Assembly (NCBI GenBank): GCA_012521465.1
Contig: JAAYMI010000040.1
Location: 1 to 33,543 of the forward strand
Direction: 5' to 3'
Length of the DNA: 33,543 nt
Source of the DNA: Bacillota bacterium
GTDB taxonomy: Bacteria; Bacillota; Limnochordia; Darwinibacteriales; Darwinibacteriaceae
Below the pieces are notes generated by a model, which saw only the letters and a list, made by a program, of their open reading frames with translations, was not told the origin of the DNA and did not search any database. Position 1 is the stretch's first letter; each line of letters opens with the position of its first letter. Made by a program: the position numbers and the translations under genes. Of this stretch, positions 3,301 through 25,549 are shown piece after piece.

Positions 3301-4746
3301 CTATGCCTGCCGCCAAAATCCTGGAGTGAAGATTACCAGTACAGTAAACATCTCGAGGCGCCCCACCAACATGAGCACCGTTAAGAGAAGTTTCACAGGC
3401 CCGCTGAAGAAACTGAAGCTATTTCCTGGACCCACGAGCCCAAAGCCCACACCCACGTTTCCTAAAGTAGCTGCTGCGGCACTCGCGGAAGTAAACAAGT
3501 CAGTGCCTGCTAGAGCTACCAGTAACGTGCCAGCTACAAACAGCCCAAGATACAAGAAGACAAAACTTGCGATGCTCGCGACTGTTTCCTGAGGTACTAC
3601 CCGTCCATTGATGGTTACAGGAACAAGGGCCTGCGAATGGAGCATGCGCCGCACTTCTCGGCCGACTAACTTCGCCGCAACCATCAAACGAATAACCTTA
3701 ATTCCCCCAGCTGTCGAACCGGCGCTTCCACCTACGAATAACAGCATAAACAGCACGGCCTTGCTGAATTCAGGCCACTGGCTGTAGTCGGCGGTGGAAT
3801 ACCCTGTCGTAGTAATGATTGAGCTGACTTGAAAAAGGGCGTGCTTGGCAGCGTCGCCCCACCCATATTGCAGTGAACGAACTAGGTTCATAGTAACCAG
3901 GGCGGCACTCAGCACAGTAATTCCGAGGTAAACCTTAAGTTCCGAATTGCTCCCTAGGGAACTCCAGCGCCTGCGCCAGAGCTCATAATATAGGGAGAAG
4001 TTCACTCCGGCCAAAATCATTAACACAGCTAGCGCCCAAGGCACCGCGCTTCCGCCGACACTGCCCATGGGAGTGCTGTAAGGGGTGAAGCCGCCTGTGC
4101 CAACCGCACCAAAGCCGAGGAGAACGGCGTCAAAAAGAGGAACACCTGCGCAAACGAGGGCCAATACCGCCAGAACAGTGAGCCCTAAATAGACGGTGTA
4201 CAGGAGCTGTGCTGTGTTGGCCAGGCGCGGCACAAGCTTGTCCGCGCTCGGACCGGGAGCTTCTGCCTTATAGATCTGCATGCCCCCCACCCCGATTGCC
4301 GGAAGGAGAGCCAGCGTAAATACTAGGATGCCCATTCCACCCAACCAATGAGAGAAGGACCGCCAAAAGAGAATACCCCTCGGCAGCGCTTCCGGATCGT
4401 TAATGATCGTCGCTCCGGTTGTGGTCAGCCCAGAAGTGCATTCAAACAAGGCATCGATAAACGTAGGTACAGCCCGTGCAAAGAAGAACGGCAGCGCACC
4501 AAACACTGCCGCAGCTGCCCAACCCAGTGTCACGATGAGCAGCCCTTCCCGGGCTTTGATCGTATCAGAGCCGGGCTTAATTCGGGTCAATACAAGGCCA
4601 GCCGCCGCCGTAATCACTATTGACCAAGCAAAAGCTGATGCGGCAGTCTCGCCATACACCACAGAAACGAGCAGCGGTACTGCGAGAATAAGGGCCTCAA
4701 TCAGCAGAAGGGTTCCCAGAATCCTTCCTACCATGCCAAAGTTCAC
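3301..4746 (-). CDS. trkH: TrkH-type potassium uptake channel subunit
   Basis: A 481-residue polytopic membrane protein of the TrkH/KtrB superfamily. The four pore-loop selectivity segments can be picked out in order: TSGLTTTGAT, GAVGTGGFTP, SSIITTTGYS and TLGNVGVGFG, each placing a glycine in the K+ filter. It forms the membrane channel that works with the NAD/ATP-binding TrkA subunit encoded just upstream. It starts with GTG (4744-4746) preceded by GGGAGG at 8 bases; the next in-frame ATG is 12 bases further and too far from that site. The first 50 bases overlap the end of trkA in a different frame, which implies translational coupling and a fixed subunit ratio. Length and motif content are normal for the family. 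Confidence 0.94.
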   Translation of the reverse strand: MNFGMVGRILGTLLLIEALILAVPLLVSVVYGETAASAFAWSIVITAAAGLVLTRIKPGSDTIKAREGLLIVTLGWAAAAVFGALPFFFARAVPTFIDALFECTSGLTTTGATIINDPEALPRGILFWRSFSHWLGGMGILVFTLALLPAIGVGGMQIYKAEAPGPSADKLVPRLANTAQLLYTVYLGLTVLAVLALVCAGVPLFDAVLLGFGAVGTGGFTPYSTPMGSVGGSAVPWALAVLMILAGVNFSLYYELWRRRWSSLGSNSELKVYLGITVLSAALVTMNLVRSLQYGWGDAAKHALFQVSSIITTTGYSTADYSQWPEFSKAVLFMLLFVGGSAGSTAGGIKVIRLMVAAKLVGREVRRMLHSQALVPVTINGRVVPQETVASIASFVFLYLGLFVAGTLLVALAGTDLFTSASAAAATLGNVGVGFGLVGPGNSFSFFSGPVKLLLTVLMLVGRLEMFTVLVIFTPGFWRQA

Positions 4747-14999: not shown

Positions 15000-15428
15000 T
15001 TATGAAGCAAAAACATGGTCACCGATCTGCATCTTGATGGGCCTGGTCCATACCCAACTACTTTGGGGGACCTTGCGCGGATTCCAAAAGAACAAGGCTC
15101 CATCGGTGGGATCGTGCCCTGAAAGAGCCTCGAGCACTGCCTCATAAGCAGTATTGTTGGGCAGCATATTGATGGTGCCATTGGCCACCACTTCGAACTG
15201 GCGCGGCTGGTAGACTACTCCCCACACGGTGTTGGGGAAGTCAGGATGCCTGAGTCGATTGAGTGCCACCGCTGCCACTGCCACCTGACCCAAATATGGT
15301 TCGCCGCGAGCCTCGGCATGGACTAAGCGGGCCAGCAGCTTGATCTCGTCCAGCTGCTGGTCCGTGTACTCATCTTCAGGAAGCACGAATCCGCCTTCCA
15401 CCGACGGAAGCACTGGCGTGGACTTCAT
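15000..15428 (-). CDS. SleB-type cell wall hydrolase, minimal single-domain form
   Basis: A 142-residue protein consisting almost entirely of a Hydrolase_2 (SleB) domain: LLARLVHAEARGEPYLGQVA holds the glutamate expected to be catalytic in the AEARGE motif, and VALNRLRHPDFPNTVWGVVY and PRQFEVVANG are typical. SleB/CwlJ proteins cut spore-cortex or vegetative peptidoglycan as lytic transglycosylases. Usual SleB has a signal peptide and a peptidoglycan-binding domain; neither is here, which resembles the smaller CwlJ-like arrangement. The ATG (15426-15428) is preceded by GGAAGGGGGGAAGAGA. The 106 bases between it and the dehydratase-like gene contain only a short CCCC-TGC-GGGG hairpin without a T run on either side. 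The gene supports a spore-forming host. Confidence 0.87.
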   Translation of the reverse strand: MKSTPVLPSVEGGFVLPEDEYTDQQLDEIKLLARLVHAEARGEPYLGQVAVAAVALNRLRHPDFPNTVWGVVYQPRQFEVVANGTINMLPNNTAYEAVLEALSGHDPTDGALFFWNPRKVPQSSWVWTRPIKMQIGDHVFAS

Positions 15429-23072: not shown

Positions 23073-24128
23073 TCATATATTCCCTGCAGTGCTGCCAACT
23101 CCTTTTCCCCTTTCAGGAGCCGACAGGCCGAGCCTGCGCAGATAGGTTAAGGGAGTTAGGTATATCCGTTCCAGCATCTGTTCATCCCCGAATTCGTGGA
23201 ACAGACCTTTATCAGGTTTGCCGTTCACTTCAATGATCCACGGTCTACCCTCTGCGTCCACCATAAAGTCCACGCAGATTTCCCCCAACCTGCCGAGGGG
23301 GCCGTCCAGCTGAACCGCAGCCAATCTGGCCAGCTTGCCCATGCGGGCGAGAATCCTTTTTCCGGCACTCCCGAAGCTGGAGAGCACTCGACTCGGATAG
23401 GAAAGGGACGCGTATTGGTTCGTGATAAAGCTCCCCTCCCGGGCGACGCGGCTCAGTTGTCCAGCCACATTCCACACGCCGCGACCATTTTTCTGAACCA
23501 CAAACCGCACATCAAAAACTCCGCCGCTAAATACTGCCCCTTGCACATATTCTTGGACTACATATTTCTCCCCCATCTGCAGGAGCTCCACAAGCGCCAA
23601 GAATGGCTCTCCCTTGGGAATGGGCAGGGGGATATTTATATTGCTGGTCACCAGAACAAACTCTCCCGCTGGCTCCAGCAGATAGACGTTCCGTCCTGAC
23701 TGGCCCCGTCTCGGCTTGATGACCCATTTCCTGCCATCGGCCAAGTGAGCTGCAAGCTGCTCGGGCACCAGTTCGTGTGCCTCGGGCAGAAAGGGCCTGA
23801 GAGCTGCACTGCCCGTCAGGACTTGGTGCACATCGAGTTTGTCAAACAGAGTGCGGGTGTTGAACACCCGCCCCTCGCCGAGAAATTGTTCAAGTCTCGC
23901 GATCACCTCTGGTTTTTCTGGGTAACAGCGGTTGTAGACGGCGTTGGGCAGCGGATAGGTCCCCTCGGTCCACGTTCCGCGGCTGAGAATCAGTCCGGCT
24001 GCGGTCCGTGCCTGCCAGTTTATGGTGTCCTCCCCAAACAGCAAGACCCGAAAGCCGTACTTGGTCGAGAGTTTCTGGTAATATGGAATCCGCTGCGTTC
24101 TGTTGAGGAGTAAACCCATCAAGATCAT
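23073..24128 (-). CDS. YheC/YheD-like ATP-grasp protein (endospore coat-associated family)
   Basis: A 351-residue protein with an N-terminal region like YheC/YheD (YRVLLFG-like strand, NAVYNRCYP, FNTRTLFDKLDVHQVL) and an ATP-grasp fold: WVIKPRRGQSGRNVYLL (ATP lysine and glycine-rich loop), YVVQEYV, DVRFVVQKNG, and the metal-binding end IIEVNGKPDKGLF. In Bacillus the family is associated with the endospore coat; the reaction is unknown but should be an ATP-dependent ligation. ATG start at 24128 with AGGAG 9-10 bases before. It faces the duplicated small-gene cassette across about 120 bases, which hints that the cassette too may be sporulation-related. Confidence 0.87.
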   Translation of the reverse strand: MILMGLLLNRTQRIPYYQKLSTKYGFRVLLFGEDTINWQARTAAGLILSRGTWTEGTYPLPNAVYNRCYPEKPEVIARLEQFLGEGRVFNTRTLFDKLDVHQVLTGSAALRPFLPEAHELVPEQLAAHLADGRKWVIKPRRGQSGRNVYLLEPAGEFVLVTSNINIPLPIPKGEPFLALVELLQMGEKYVVQEYVQGAVFSGGVFDVRFVVQKNGRGVWNVAGQLSRVAREGSFITNQYASLSYPSRVLSSFGSAGKRILARMGKLARLAAVQLDGPLGRLGEICVDFMVDAEGRPWIIEVNGKPDKGLFHEFGDEQMLERIYLTPLTYLRRLGLSAPERGKGVGSTAGNI

Positions 24129-24203
24129 AGGACACCACTCCTGAGGTGGGTAAAATAGGACAGCGGTAATAAAGCGCCTAACTCCAGCTTACATACCCTA
24201 ATA

Positions 24204-24222
24204 CGAGAGCAGGCGACTCTCG
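24204..24222 (+). promoter_or_regulatory. 5' hairpin of copy A
   Basis: CGAGAG (24204-24209) and CTCTCG (24217-24222) form a 6-bp stem with a 7-base loop, 14 bases ahead of the ribosome binding site. In copy B the closing C-G pair is replaced by T-A, a compensatory change that supports a real RNA structure. Confidence 0.6.
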
Positions 24223-24248
24223 AGTACTCGCTCCAAGGAGGTAGCACC

Positions 24249-24329
24249 TTGAACAACCAGCAGGAAACCTTCATCGTCTTCGTAGCGCTGATTCTCATCG
24301 TGGTACTGGCTGTGATTCTCCTTGCCTAG
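24249..24329 (+). CDS. 26-residue hydrophobic microprotein, copy A
   Basis: A TTG-start gene for a peptide with a short polar head (MNNQQET) and a 19-residue all-hydrophobic tail (FIVFVALILIVVLAVILLA) long enough for one membrane helix. GGAGG lies exactly 7 bases before the TTG, and a strong terminator begins 7 bases after the stop, so the transcript is a very short monocistronic message. Copy B encodes the same peptide with only residues 3 and 4 changed although 8 other codons differ synonymously, strong evidence of translation. The hydrophobic core recalls the tiny YjcZ-like sporulation proteins, but small type I toxins have the same general look. Function is not assigned. Confidence 0.85.
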   Translation: MNNQQETFIVFVALILIVVLAVILLA

Positions 24330-24336
24330 CGAAAGG

Positions 24337-24367
24337 GAGATGGGGTTAAGTCCCCATCTCTTCTTTT
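24337..24367 (+). terminator. Intrinsic terminator after microprotein A
   Basis: GAGATGGGG (24337-24345), loop TTAAGT, CCCCATCTC (24352-24360), followed by TTCTTTTTT. A 9-bp perfect stem with a good T run, separating the 26-residue gene from the 92-residue gene. Confidence 0.9.
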
Positions 24368-24424
24368 TTAGTATATGAGTACCTGGAAAATCGGGAACGA
24401 GTTCCTGATAGCTATTGCCCCTGA

Positions 24425-24438
24425 GACTAATATCATAG
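24425..24438 (+). promoter_or_regulatory. Conserved block upstream of the 92-residue gene, copy A
   Basis: GACTAATATCATAG is identical in both copies (also 25180-25193) although most surrounding non-coding sequence differs, and it sits between the terminator and the ribosome binding site. Since transcription from upstream should stop at the terminator, this is a candidate promoter element. Its CATAG core resembles -10 elements of late sporulation sigma factors, but no matching -35 was found. Confidence 0.4.
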
Positions 24439-24459
24439 GAACAAAGGAGGTGTATCTGA

Positions 24460-24738
24460 ATGGCCGCGGGTAACAATGGCGCTAACCAAACCTTTGACAC
24501 ACTGCTGAGGGTCCTGCCAAGCATTATTGCTGCGTATCCCGCATTCATGGCACTGATCAGCGAACAAGGTACCGGAAAGATCGACCTCACCCAAGTGGTG
24601 ACGGCCCTGCCGCAGATCCTCGATGAAGTACGCAATGCAACGCCCGAGCAGCTTGAGCAGCTGTTGACTCACATCACAGAGACGTTTCCAGGCCTAGAAG
24701 GGGTACTACCACAACAAGGGGGGACGAAAGATGGGTAG
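24460..24738 (+). CDS. 92-residue protein of unrecognised family, copy A
   Basis: I do not recognise the family. The protein is soluble-looking and probably helical: a short Gly/Asn/Gln-rich head (MAAGNNGANQTFD), then leucine-rich amphipathic segments punctuated by prolines (LLRVLPSIIAAYPAFMAL, TALPQILDEVRNATPEQLEQ, FPGLEGVLP). No cysteine, signal peptide or membrane helix. Copy B has the same length and roughly half the residues, with AYPxFM, ALPQIL, the VR-A-PE-LE spacing and PGLE-LP kept; these mark the structural core. An ideal AAAGGAGG is 9 bases before the ATG. Its stop codon is overlapped by the start of the 31-residue peptide gene, so the two are translationally coupled. Confidence 0.88.
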   Translation: MAAGNNGANQTFDTLLRVLPSIIAAYPAFMALISEQGTGKIDLTQVVTALPQILDEVRNATPEQLEQLLTHITETFPGLEGVLPQQGGTKDG

Positions 24739-24826
24739 ACCGGCTCCTTGCTGTCAGCTTGATCCCTTAATGGTGATTTTCATCCTTTTCCTGGTAGCAT
24801 TGGTGATCATCGCCGCCAGAACCTGA
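24731..24826 (+). CDS. 31-residue single-pass membrane microprotein, coupled to the 92-residue gene (copy A only)
   Basis: ATG at 24731-24733 overlaps the TAG of the preceding gene, with AAGGGGGG 7 bases before it (within the preceding coding region). The peptide has a short head with a cysteine pair (MGRPAPCCQLDP) followed by a hydrophobic helix (LMVIFILFLVALVIIAA) and ends RT. Tiny proteins with cysteines and one hydrophobic helix are common among sporulation genes of this phylum; that resemblance is general. It is followed 17 bases later by a terminator. Copy B has no counterpart: only the GGGTAG-CCGGC flank is retained. Confidence 0.72.
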   Translation: MGRPAPCCQLDPLMVIFILFLVALVIIAART

Positions 24827-24843
24827 TAGTCCACGCTGATAAC

Positions 24844-24882
24844 GCCCAGACTAGCTGAACAACAGTCTGGGCCTTTTCCTCT
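24844..24882 (+). terminator. Intrinsic terminator closing copy A
   Basis: GCCCAGACT (24844-24852), 11-base loop, AGTCTGGGC (24864-24872), followed by CTTTTCCTCT. Confidence 0.85.
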
Positions 24883-24958
24883 CGGGGATGCAGTTCCCCA
24901 CTTTGCAAAATAGGATGGCAGAATTACAGCATTCGCCCGGCCTTGACATACCTTGAAG

Positions 24959-24978
24959 TGAGAGCGTGCAGACTCTCA
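24959..24978 (+). promoter_or_regulatory. 5' hairpin of copy B
   Basis: TGAGAG (24959-24964) pairs with CTCTCA (24973-24978), loop of 8. It is equivalent to the copy A hairpin with a compensatory closing pair. An alternative pairing AGCGTG (24963-24968) with CACGCT (24983-24988) would reach to within a few bases of the ribosome binding site. Confidence 0.55.
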
Positions 24979-25004
24979 ACTACACGCTTCAAGGAGGTGG
25001 CGAT

Positions 25005-25085
25005 TTGAACGACGCTCAGGAGACCTTCATCGTTTTTGTAGCTTTAATTCTCATCGTGGTGCTAGCTGTGATTCTCCTTGCTTAG
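25005..25085 (+). CDS. 26-residue hydrophobic microprotein, copy B
   Basis: TTG-start paralogue of the copy A peptide: head MNDAQET, then the identical 19-residue hydrophobic tail. Two replacements (N3D, Q4A) against eight synonymously changed codons show that the protein sequence, not just the DNA, is being kept. AAGGAGG is 7 bases before the TTG, the same spacing as copy A. A terminator with the same stem sequence starts 7 bases after the stop. The function is unknown; membrane insertion is inferred from hydrophobicity. Confidence 0.85.
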   Translation: MNDAQETFIVFVALILIVVLAVILLA

Positions 25086-25092
25086 CGAATTG

Positions 25093-25125
25093 GAGATGGG
25101 GTGCACGCCCCATCTCTTCTTCTTA
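25093..25125 (+). terminator. Intrinsic terminator after microprotein B
   Basis: GAGATGGGG (25093-25101), loop TGCACG, CCCCATCTC (25108-25116), then TTCTTCTTA. The stem is identical to copy A while the loop differs. Confidence 0.88.
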
Positions 25126-25179
25126 GTTTATTCCCAGTTCACGAATAGGGAACACATTCCTGACAGCCAAATCTCAGGG

Positions 25180-25193
25180 GACTAATATCATAG
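25180..25193 (+). promoter_or_regulatory. Conserved block upstream of the 92-residue gene, copy B
   Basis: GACTAATATCATAG, identical to 24425-24438. A second shared segment lies further up (GGGAAC-nnn-TTCCTGA at 24393 and 25148). Both are candidates for promoter or activator elements that restart transcription after the terminator. Confidence 0.4.
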
Positions 25194-25213
25194 AAGCAAA
25201 GGAGGTGTAGACA

Positions 25214-25492
25214 ATGGCTGTTGGCGGTACTGGATCGAATCAGTCCTTTGACGCGCTGCTGAAACTGCTGCCTGGCTTGGTCTCTGCGTATCCATCGTTC
25301 ATGTCACTGTTAGGTGAACATGGCGTGGATAAGGCCAGTCTAAATCAACTGACTGCGGCATTACCACAAATCCTGGAAAAAGTGAGGGAAGCAGAACCAG
25401 AGAAACTGGAAGAGTTGGTTTCCCAGATCTCCCAGGCTGTGCCAGGCTTGGAGGATCTTCTGCCAAAAAGAGAGGGAAAAAGGAGAGGGTAG
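25214..25492 (+). CDS. 92-residue protein of unrecognised family, copy B
   Basis: Paralogue of the copy A protein with identical length and no gaps in the alignment. Conserved segments are NQ-FD-LL, LP--(9)-AYP-FM-L, ALPQIL, VR-A-PE-LE-L and PGLE-LP; the C-terminal tail is more basic (KREGKRRG). The regular proline-leucine spacing suggests a small helical bundle. GGAGG is 8 bases before the ATG. No coupled downstream peptide follows: the stop is 20 bases before the terminator stem. Function unknown. Maintenance of two diverged copies suggests subfunctions or a heteromer. Confidence 0.86.
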   Translation: MAVGGTGSNQSFDALLKLLPGLVSAYPSFMSLLGEHGVDKASLNQLTAALPQILEKVREAEPEKLEELVSQISQAVPGLEDLLPKREGKRRG

Positions 25493-25512
25493 GCCGGCCC
25501 TGCAACCTATTA

Positions 25513-25549
25513 GGCCCAGACTAGCAAGGAGGCTAGCCTGGGCCGTTTT
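25513..25549 (+). terminator. Intrinsic terminator closing copy B
   Basis: GGCCCAGACTAGC (25513-25525), 6-base loop, GCTAGCCTGGGCC (25532-25544): a 13-bp stem with one mismatch, followed by GTTTTG. It lies between convergent genes, 12 bases from the stop of the alcohol dehydrogenase gene. Confidence 0.8.

What the first reader, a model, noticed from the sequence alone, without database searches (positions are those of the whole stretch)
24191..25549. Tandem cassette of microprotein genes with a 92-residue partner of unknown family
The same five-part unit occurs twice: hairpin leader, 26-residue hydrophobic peptide, terminator, conserved promoter-like block, 92-residue helical protein. Seen directly: order, spacings, terminators and start-site spacing are all preserved while synonymous sites have drifted. 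I recognise neither protein family. The cassette faces a spore-coat-family ATP-grasp gene, so a sporulation or spore-envelope role is one inference; another is a membrane peptide plus soluble partner acting as a stress or toxin module. It is the best candidate in the window for an undescribed system.
Basis: partly seen in the sequence, partly recalled or inferred. Interest (0 to 1): 0.8.

Follow-up and report, generated by a model that had tools for sequence, protein, structure and literature searches.

The report
Sporulation-linked membrane microprotein and helical partner
A tiny, almost unchanging 26-residue membrane protein and a fast-evolving helical partner sit beside a spore-coat-type enzyme in 22 related Bacillota genomes, under an unusual promoter of the spore-forming type, and probably form an undescribed part of the spore envelope.

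Summary
Both 26-residue peptides are genuine genes: about 0.5-1 substitution per synonymous site, dN/dS about 0.1 or less. The cassette is not confined to this genome. The peptide occurs in 22 of 73 genomes of the class, in two families of one order, and in none of the roughly 380 other phylum genomes sampled. Beside each peptide lies a YheC/D (PF14398) ATP-grasp gene. All but one copy also has an 'LLPxxxxxYP' helical protein. That partner matches no Pfam, NCBIfam, PHROG, PADLOC or PDB entry convincingly.

A second kind of membrane microprotein (31 aa, 24731-24826) overlaps the first 92-aa gene. The peptide promoter lies upstream of the stated range: AAAANRGGA-N31-CATANNNTR, near-identical in 20 of 20 family copies and found only twice in the 2.5-Mb genome, both times here. 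Its -10 matches mother-cell sigma-E/K promoters.

Best reading: a mother-cell spore-envelope module in which membrane microproteins organise helical proteins. Sporulation is supported circumstantially; recruitment is inference. A toxin-antitoxin reading fits worse. Novelty: new families of a known kind (tiny membrane spore proteins such as YjcZ/SscA), with a frozen peptide beside a drifting partner.

The parts
24152..24200 (+). Promoter of peptide copy 1: upstream box AAAATAGGA (24152-24160), 31 bp, -10 CATACCCTA (24192-24200)
   Evidence: Box and -10 at identical spacing in 20 of 20 peptide copies of the family; only two whole-genome hits of the pattern, both here
24204..24222 (+). Leader hairpin at the predicted 5' end of the peptide mRNA (CGAGAG-CAGGCGA-CTCTCG)
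   Evidence: Stem at the same place in relatives with two-sided changes: AAGAAG/CTTCTT, TGAGAG/CTCTCA, TGAAG/CTTCA; single-sequence shuffle support is weak
24249..24329 (+). 26-aa single-pass membrane microprotein, copy 1 (MNNQQETFIVFVALILIVVLAVILLA)
   Evidence: Strong RBS; dN/dS about 0.1 or less in nearly all comparisons within the family; 22 genomes
24335..24362 (+). Intrinsic-terminator-like hairpin after peptide copy 1
   Evidence: 11-bp stem and T-tract; equivalent hairpin in relatives
24388..24437 (+). Putative promoter of 92-aa gene copy 1: AAATCGGGA, 32 bp, AATATCATA
   Evidence: Same layout in the nearest relatives and in g11 of the second family; 0.3% in shuffles
24460..24738 (+). 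92-aa helical 'LLPxxxxxYP' partner protein, copy 1
   Evidence: Homologous partner next to the peptide in relatives; no known family
24731..24826 (+).
   Evidence: Orthologue MGRPxCCGxDPxTAIFILFLV.. in most other family loci
24907..24955 (+). Promoter of peptide copy 2: AAAATAGGA (24907-24915), 31 bp, -10 CATACCTTG (24947-24955)
24959..24978 (+). Leader hairpin, copy 2 (TGAGAG-CGTGCAGA-CTCTCA)
25005..25085 (+). 26-aa membrane microprotein, copy 2 (MNDAQETFIVFVALILIVVLAVILLA)
25092..25117 (+). Intrinsic-terminator-like hairpin after peptide copy 2
25143..25192 (+). Putative promoter of 92-aa gene copy 2: GAATAGGGA, 32 bp, AATATCATA
25214..25492 (+). 92-aa helical partner protein, copy 2
   Evidence: low-confidence all-helical model
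23073..24128 (-). YheC/D-family ATP-grasp protein (PF14398), divergent from the cassette
   Evidence: PF14398 E 7.4e-48; adjacent to the peptide in all 22 carrier genomes; the only copy in this genome

Best explanation
This is a lineage-specific sporulation (mother-cell) envelope module. Sigma-E/K-type RNA polymerase, helped by an unidentified activator at the AAAANRGGA box, makes a very short mRNA for a 26-residue membrane microprotein. The mRNA begins with a hairpin and ends at a terminator, which would favour high, autonomous expression. The microprotein inserts into a membrane, most likely the outer forespore membrane. There it and the 30-31-aa second microprotein act as scaffold sites for the 85-95-aa helical 'LLPxxxxxYP' proteins, which are deposited on the developing spore. 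The adjacent YheC/D ATP-grasp ligase probably modifies a component of the same layer. Shown here: genes, conservation, synteny, promoter architecture, distribution. Inferred: sporulation timing, location, peptide-partner contact, ligase substrate.
For: (1) The peptide lies beside a YheC/D gene in 22 of 22 carrier genomes; genome-level association with YheC/D p=3e-8, not corrected for phylogeny. G033, a genus-mate of carriers, lacks both. In B. subtilis yheC and yheD are sigma-E genes stimulated by SpoIIID (PMC517825). (2) The promoter box-N31-CATANNNTR keeps its spacing to the base in 20 of 20 copies and is nearly absent elsewhere in the genomes. Its -10 matches the published sigma-K (GCATANNNTA) and sigma-E (KCATANANTN) consensus (PMC3416734; PMC3789822). 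C at -17 (19 of 20) sits where the sigma-K -35 'AC' ends. (3) The same box and spacing precede the MGN/second-microprotein operon in sister genera, and a similar box the 92-aa genes here and in g11. (4) The peptide is 81-96% identical across four genera while the partner falls to 19-36%, as expected if the peptide is the constrained organiser. (5) A superoxide dismutase gene lies just upstream of the cluster in g4/g9; in C. difficile SodA is sigma-G controlled and found at the spore surface (PMC3789822). (6) All carriers have SpoIVA. (7) B. subtilis yjcZ, a tiny membrane-peptide gene, is in the sigma-K regulon (PMC517825).
Against: SpoIVA is present in 67 of 73 genomes of the class, so it does not discriminate (p=0.17). 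No expression or spore proteome data were available. The -35 element is ambiguous between sigma-E and sigma-K, and the promoters have not been mapped. In g4/g9 the partner gene lacks the box promoter. G012 has lost the partner beside the peptide and G016 carries a truncated one, so the peptide does not depend on that partner. The partner models are low confidence (pLDDT 62 and 66).
Confidence: 0.5

Rival explanations
1. Type I toxin-antitoxin-like module: the hydrophobic peptide is a membrane toxin held in check by an antisense RNA or by the 92-aa protein.
For: A small hydrophobic single-pass peptide in a short hairpin-flanked mRNA resembles type I toxins. B. subtilis YhzE-family peptides have been proposed as type I toxins but are unconfirmed (PMC6562991). 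Minus-strand promoter-like sites lie at 24460-24432 and 25214-25187.
Against: The peptide is nearly invariant across genera, whereas B. subtilis type I toxins drift. It has no K/R/H in 24 of 25 copies. It is locus-bound beside YheC/D in every carrier, with no hit in the viral contigs. The block holding the minus-strand site is absent in g4/g9 and in one G005 copy. The peptide survives without the adjacent partner in G012.
Confidence: 0.08
2. The 26-codon ORF is a leader peptide: its translation controls read-through of the hairpin into the 92-aa gene (attenuation).
For: Short ORF, then terminator, then structural gene is the classic layout. In G005 copy 2 the partner follows the hairpin with no promoter box, so read-through may feed it there.
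Against: Selection acts on the whole amino-acid sequence, with synonymous sites free, and there is no run of regulatory codons. The partner has its own box promoter in g1, G005 copy 1 and g11. The peptide persists where the partner is gone.
Confidence: 0.07
3. A sporulation gene set as in the best explanation, but forespore- or inner-membrane-directed, or acting on membrane properties independently of the 92-aa protein; the neighbours are co-regulated and not physical partners.
For: The peptide outlives the adjacent partner (G012 lost, G016 truncated) and evolves at a very different rate. Peptide and partner have separate transcription signals in several genomes.
Against: All other copies keep a homologous helical protein next to the microprotein; the -10 resembles the mother-cell consensus and not the forespore one.
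Confidence: 0.3

Closest known systems
YjcZ / YhzE (SscA) tiny membrane spore proteins of Bacillus (Pfam PF09680 YjcZ_2)
   Same: Peptide of about 25-35 residues, short polar start then one membrane helix (from memory); yjcZ is in the sigma-K regulon (PMC517825). That SscA (YhzE) acts in coat assembly is from memory and was not found in the held library.
   Different: No Pfam or NCBIfam match. No hit over the YjcZ_2 cut-off in any of the 73 class genomes although B. subtilis is among the controls that ring. Here the microprotein is tied to a helical partner and an ATP-grasp gene.
YheC/YheD spore-associated ATP-grasp proteins (PF14398)
   Same: The divergent neighbour is a member; B. subtilis yheC and yheD belong to sigma-E/SpoIIID.
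   Different: In B. subtilis no linked microprotein/helical-protein pair is known to me (memory). Other YheC/D paralogues in these genomes adjoin different small proteins.
SpoVM (26-aa spore coat anchor)
   Same: Same length; a coat-organising microprotein at the forespore membrane is the functional analogy (from memory).
   Different: SpoVM is a basic amphipathic surface helix (memory); this peptide is an almost uncharged membrane-spanning helix.
[quoted passage not shown]
   Same: Small hydrophobic membrane peptide in a short structured mRNA.
   Different: Extreme conservation, no basic residues, fixed chromosomal locus, no conserved antisense promoter.

Membership tests
YjcZ/SscA tiny TM family (PF09680) | Match to the family profile over its cut-off | tested here: not met
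   0 of 73 class genomes over the cut-off; one control genome over it and B. subtilis among the controls that ring; no Pfam/NCBIfam hit
YjcZ/SscA tiny TM family (PF09680) | Sigma-K-type promoter | tested here: inconclusive
   CATANNNTR -10 in all family copies; the -35 fits sigma-K and, less consistently, sigma-E
YjcZ/SscA tiny TM family (PF09680) | Role in coat assembly or germination | not testable with these tools
   needs a mutant
YheC/D ATP-grasp (neighbour gene) | PF14398 domain over cut-off | tested here: met
   163.5 bits against cut-off 26.8
Type I toxin-antitoxin | Conserved antisense RNA gene | tested here: not met
   The minus-strand promoter-like site lies in a block missing from g4/g9 and one G005 copy
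Type I toxin-antitoxin | Toxicity on overexpression | not testable with these tools
   needs bench work
Attenuator leader peptide | Regulatory codon run and dependence of the downstream gene on read-through | tested here: not met
   No codon run; selection on the amino-acid sequence; own partner promoter in g1, G005 copy 1 and g11. Exception: G005 copy 2 has no box promoter
TAL-effector-like helical repeats (raised by profile hits) | A single significant repeat match or the repeat array | tested here: not met
   Summed E 1e-12 but no single stretch significant; no fold match

The most novel reading that the evidence does not exclude
A previously undescribed spore-envelope assembly system in deep-branching Bacillota: two kinds of conserved membrane microproteins serve as membrane scaffolds for rapidly diverging helical proteins, with a dedicated ATP-grasp ligase, all switched on by a dedicated mother-cell promoter and activator box found almost only at this locus.
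Probability: 0.35. Interest if true: 0.75.

Novelty: new variant of a known kind. Interest (0 to 1): 0.55.

Why it matters
Tiny membrane proteins of spores are easily missed by annotation, and whether YhzE-type peptides are type I toxins is still called unconfirmed in the literature (PMC6562991). Here is an independent, unnamed family in uncultured digester Bacillota in which the peptide is almost frozen while its neighbour drifts, with a promoter nearly private to the locus. That makes the question 'what does a 26-residue membrane peptide organise in a spore?' directly testable, and gives a marker for candidate spore-envelope genes in a lineage with no genetics.

Tried and rejected
Rfam on the window: no match. 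Pfam/NCBIfam/PHROGs/PADLOC on the small proteins: only weak helical hits, such as HEC-01A at 9e-4 over 48 residues and AvrBs3 at 5e-3, rejected as helix composition. PDB sequence search gave many TAL-repeat chains at 1e-12 from summed 'LxxLLPxL' helices with no single significant stretch; rejected, and the fold search found nothing better than E 4. AlphaFold models pLDDT 62 and 66, too weak for a fold claim. A leader pseudoknot suspected by eye in g1 copies was not pursued because it was not apparent in other genera. Single-sequence hairpin shuffle tests are weak; only the two-sided changes support the stem. The other YheC/D paralogues examined do not carry the peptides. SpoIVA co-occurrence is uninformative because nearly all class members have it. 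The forespore sigma-G reading of the -10 does not fit.

Full report
WHAT IS THERE. The two units described exist at the stated place. Unit 1: 26-aa peptide 24249-24329, terminator-like hairpin 24335-24362, 92-aa protein 24460-24738. Unit 2: 25005-25085, 25092-25117, 25214-25492. The 92-aa proteins are 50% identical without a gap. Synonymous change between the two peptide copies is 9.5 differences on 19.7 sites against 3.5 nonsynonymous on 55.3; compared with other members of the family, dN/dS is about 0.1 or less in nearly all pairs (higher for two closely related copies). These are genuine coding genes.

DISTRIBUTION. The window lies in a 2.5-Mb draft genome. The only same-genus relative searched, G001, is Peptococcaceae bacterium 1109, matched through its contig length. 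A profile of the peptide finds it in 22 of 73 genomes of the class, all in two families of one order (one further weak hit in G006 is a 10-residue chance match), and in none of about 380 other genomes drawn from the phylum (two weak hits lie inside long frames). A profile of the 92-aa family finds the same carriers except G027, whose partner was found by eye beside the peptide. A degenerate DNA scan of about 85,000 species genomes returned only genomes of this group (19 stretches), and the same pattern has no hit in 2.9 million viral contigs. Within the first family the peptide is 81-96% identical to window copy 2, whereas the adjacent partner falls from 74% to 19%. In the second family the partner is a longer (144-166 aa) protein with repeated LMxxLPxLxxxLP segments; profile comparison gives 94.8% probability of relationship.

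NEIGHBOURHOOD. Gene maps of 21 related loci show a recurrent arrangement. In g4 and g9: superoxide dismutase (Sod_Fe_N), MGN-type small protein, second microprotein (MGRPxCCGxDPxTAIFILFLV..), about 90-aa helical protein 'DALLKLLPxLxxSYP', divergent YheC/D ATP-grasp gene, 26-aa peptide, about 94-aa helical protein. In g1 and g5, including this window, the order is ATP-grasp (divergent), peptide, 92-aa, second microprotein, peptide, 92-aa. PF14398 is found next to the peptide in every carrier. In G000, G001 and G005 it is the only YheC/D gene. G033, a genus-mate of four carriers, lacks both peptide and YheC/D. The genome-level association of peptide with YheC/D has p=3e-8 without correction for phylogeny; the association with SpoIVA is not informative because 67 of 73 genomes have it. 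In G012 the partner beside the peptide is gone and in G016 it is truncated at 78 residues, but the peptide is intact, so the peptide does not need that particular neighbour.

CONTROL REGIONS. Aligned on the -10, all 20 peptide copies of the first family have an AAAANRRGA-type box starting exactly 40 bases before CATANNNTR, with no indel, and C at -17 in 19 of 20; one or two copies carry a single G in the A-run. In the second family the -10 is AATANNNTR at a similar distance from the start codon. The strict pattern AAAANRGGA-N{31,32}-MATANNNTR has exactly two hits in the whole own genome, both before the two peptide copies. In carrier genomes it has one to three hits, most of them at this locus, including the promoter of the MGN/second-microprotein operon; the reversed control pattern is nearly silent. 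In two family members without the peptide (G002, G006) the same promoter precedes a different small cluster, which in G002 is next to YheC/D. The 92-aa genes of this window, G001, one G005 copy and several g11 genomes have a related box at N31-32 before A[AG]TANNNTR, 25-34 bases ahead of the start codon; the relaxed pattern is seen in 0.3% of shuffles. Published consensus sequences are KCACM/GCATANNNTA for sigma-K and TYATATTT/KCATANANTN for sigma-E of B. subtilis (PMC3416734). In C. difficile the two share the -10 and differ in the -35, 'AC' against 'ATA' (PMC3789822). The -10 here fits both; the -35 is compatible with sigma-K (C at -17) and less consistently with sigma-E. Which factor acts is not settled. 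The leader begins with a stem whose two arms changed together between genera: AAGAAG/CTTCTT, TGAGAG/CTCTCA, CGAGAG/CTCTCG, TGAAG/CTTCA. Each stem alone is not exceptional against shuffles.

HOW IT MOST LIKELY WORKS. The peptide is a single membrane helix with a six- to seven-residue polar start and, in 24 of 25 copies, no basic residue. Shown: the genes, their selection, the synteny and the promoter layout. Inferred from the YheC/D neighbour (sigma-E/SpoIIID genes in B. subtilis, PMC517825), the -10 type and the SpoIVA background: expression in the mother cell during sporulation. Inferred further: the peptides sit in the outer forespore membrane and organise the helical proteins, and the ATP-grasp ligase modifies a component. 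Independent transcription signals and a terminator between peptide and partner would allow an excess of peptide over partner. G005 copy 2, which lacks a box promoter before the partner, must rely on read-through or an unseen promoter. The strongest caution is that peptide and partner may merely be co-regulated.

COMPARISON WITH WHAT IS KNOWN. The closest in kind are the tiny membrane spore proteins YjcZ and YhzE/SscA; yjcZ is in the sigma-K regulon (PMC517825), and YhzE-family peptides have also been listed as unconfirmed type I toxins (PMC6562991). Membership was tested and not met: no YjcZ_2 hit over the cut-off in 73 genomes while B. subtilis is among the controls that ring. The partner has no convincing relative in Pfam, NCBIfam, PHROGs or PADLOC, nor in the PDB by sequence or fold; the two AlphaFold models are all-helical and low confidence. 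It therefore works like a known kind (sporulation microproteins) but belongs to new families with a distinctive layout.

VERDICT. Observation confirmed and extended. The sporulation reading is favoured on circumstantial grounds, the toxin reading disfavoured, and the mechanism open. Novelty: new variant of a known kind.

Noticed in passing
window 24731-24826: 31-aa membrane microprotein with a CC motif, overlapping the 92-aa gene; orthologues lie in an operon with a 90-aa helical protein in sister genera.
   Followed up: yes
L061, L063, L069, L070: A third membrane microprotein family (MYPxxDDxLPFLLLVAMLxLVxLAxIW.., 28 aa) near glycosyltransferase-like genes, about 1-2 kb beyond the peptide in g9 genomes.
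   Followed up: no
L149, L151, L152, L154, L155, L158, L160-L162, L165: Most other YheC/D paralogues adjoin a different small protein of 79-111 aa ('CCxCPxAW..QWQLRQVQxxYIVxRRP..IPCxxIVALVEAPP'), with no Pfam family; another candidate YheC/D-linked small spore protein.
   Followed up: partly
L203 and L205 (reverse strand): In f1 genomes without the peptide the same box-N31-CATANNNTA promoter drives a cluster of 'CDEIFY..VPPGS..TVTVxEC' proteins of about 170-190 aa without a Pfam match.
   Followed up: partly
L204 (reverse strand) 3612-4451: In G007 the same promoter pattern precedes two small ferritin-like-looking proteins of 121 and 144 aa; the 121-aa one has no Pfam match, the other was not scanned.
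   Followed up: no
window 15000-15428 (minus): Cell wall hydrolase PF07486 (SleB/CwlJ-type domain), a possible spore germination hydrolase elsewhere in the window.
   Followed up: partly
L057 7886-8291 (G005 copy 2): A partner copy with only a 67-base spacer, no box promoter and a degraded T-tract after the hairpin, suggesting an operon fed by read-through.
   Followed up: partly
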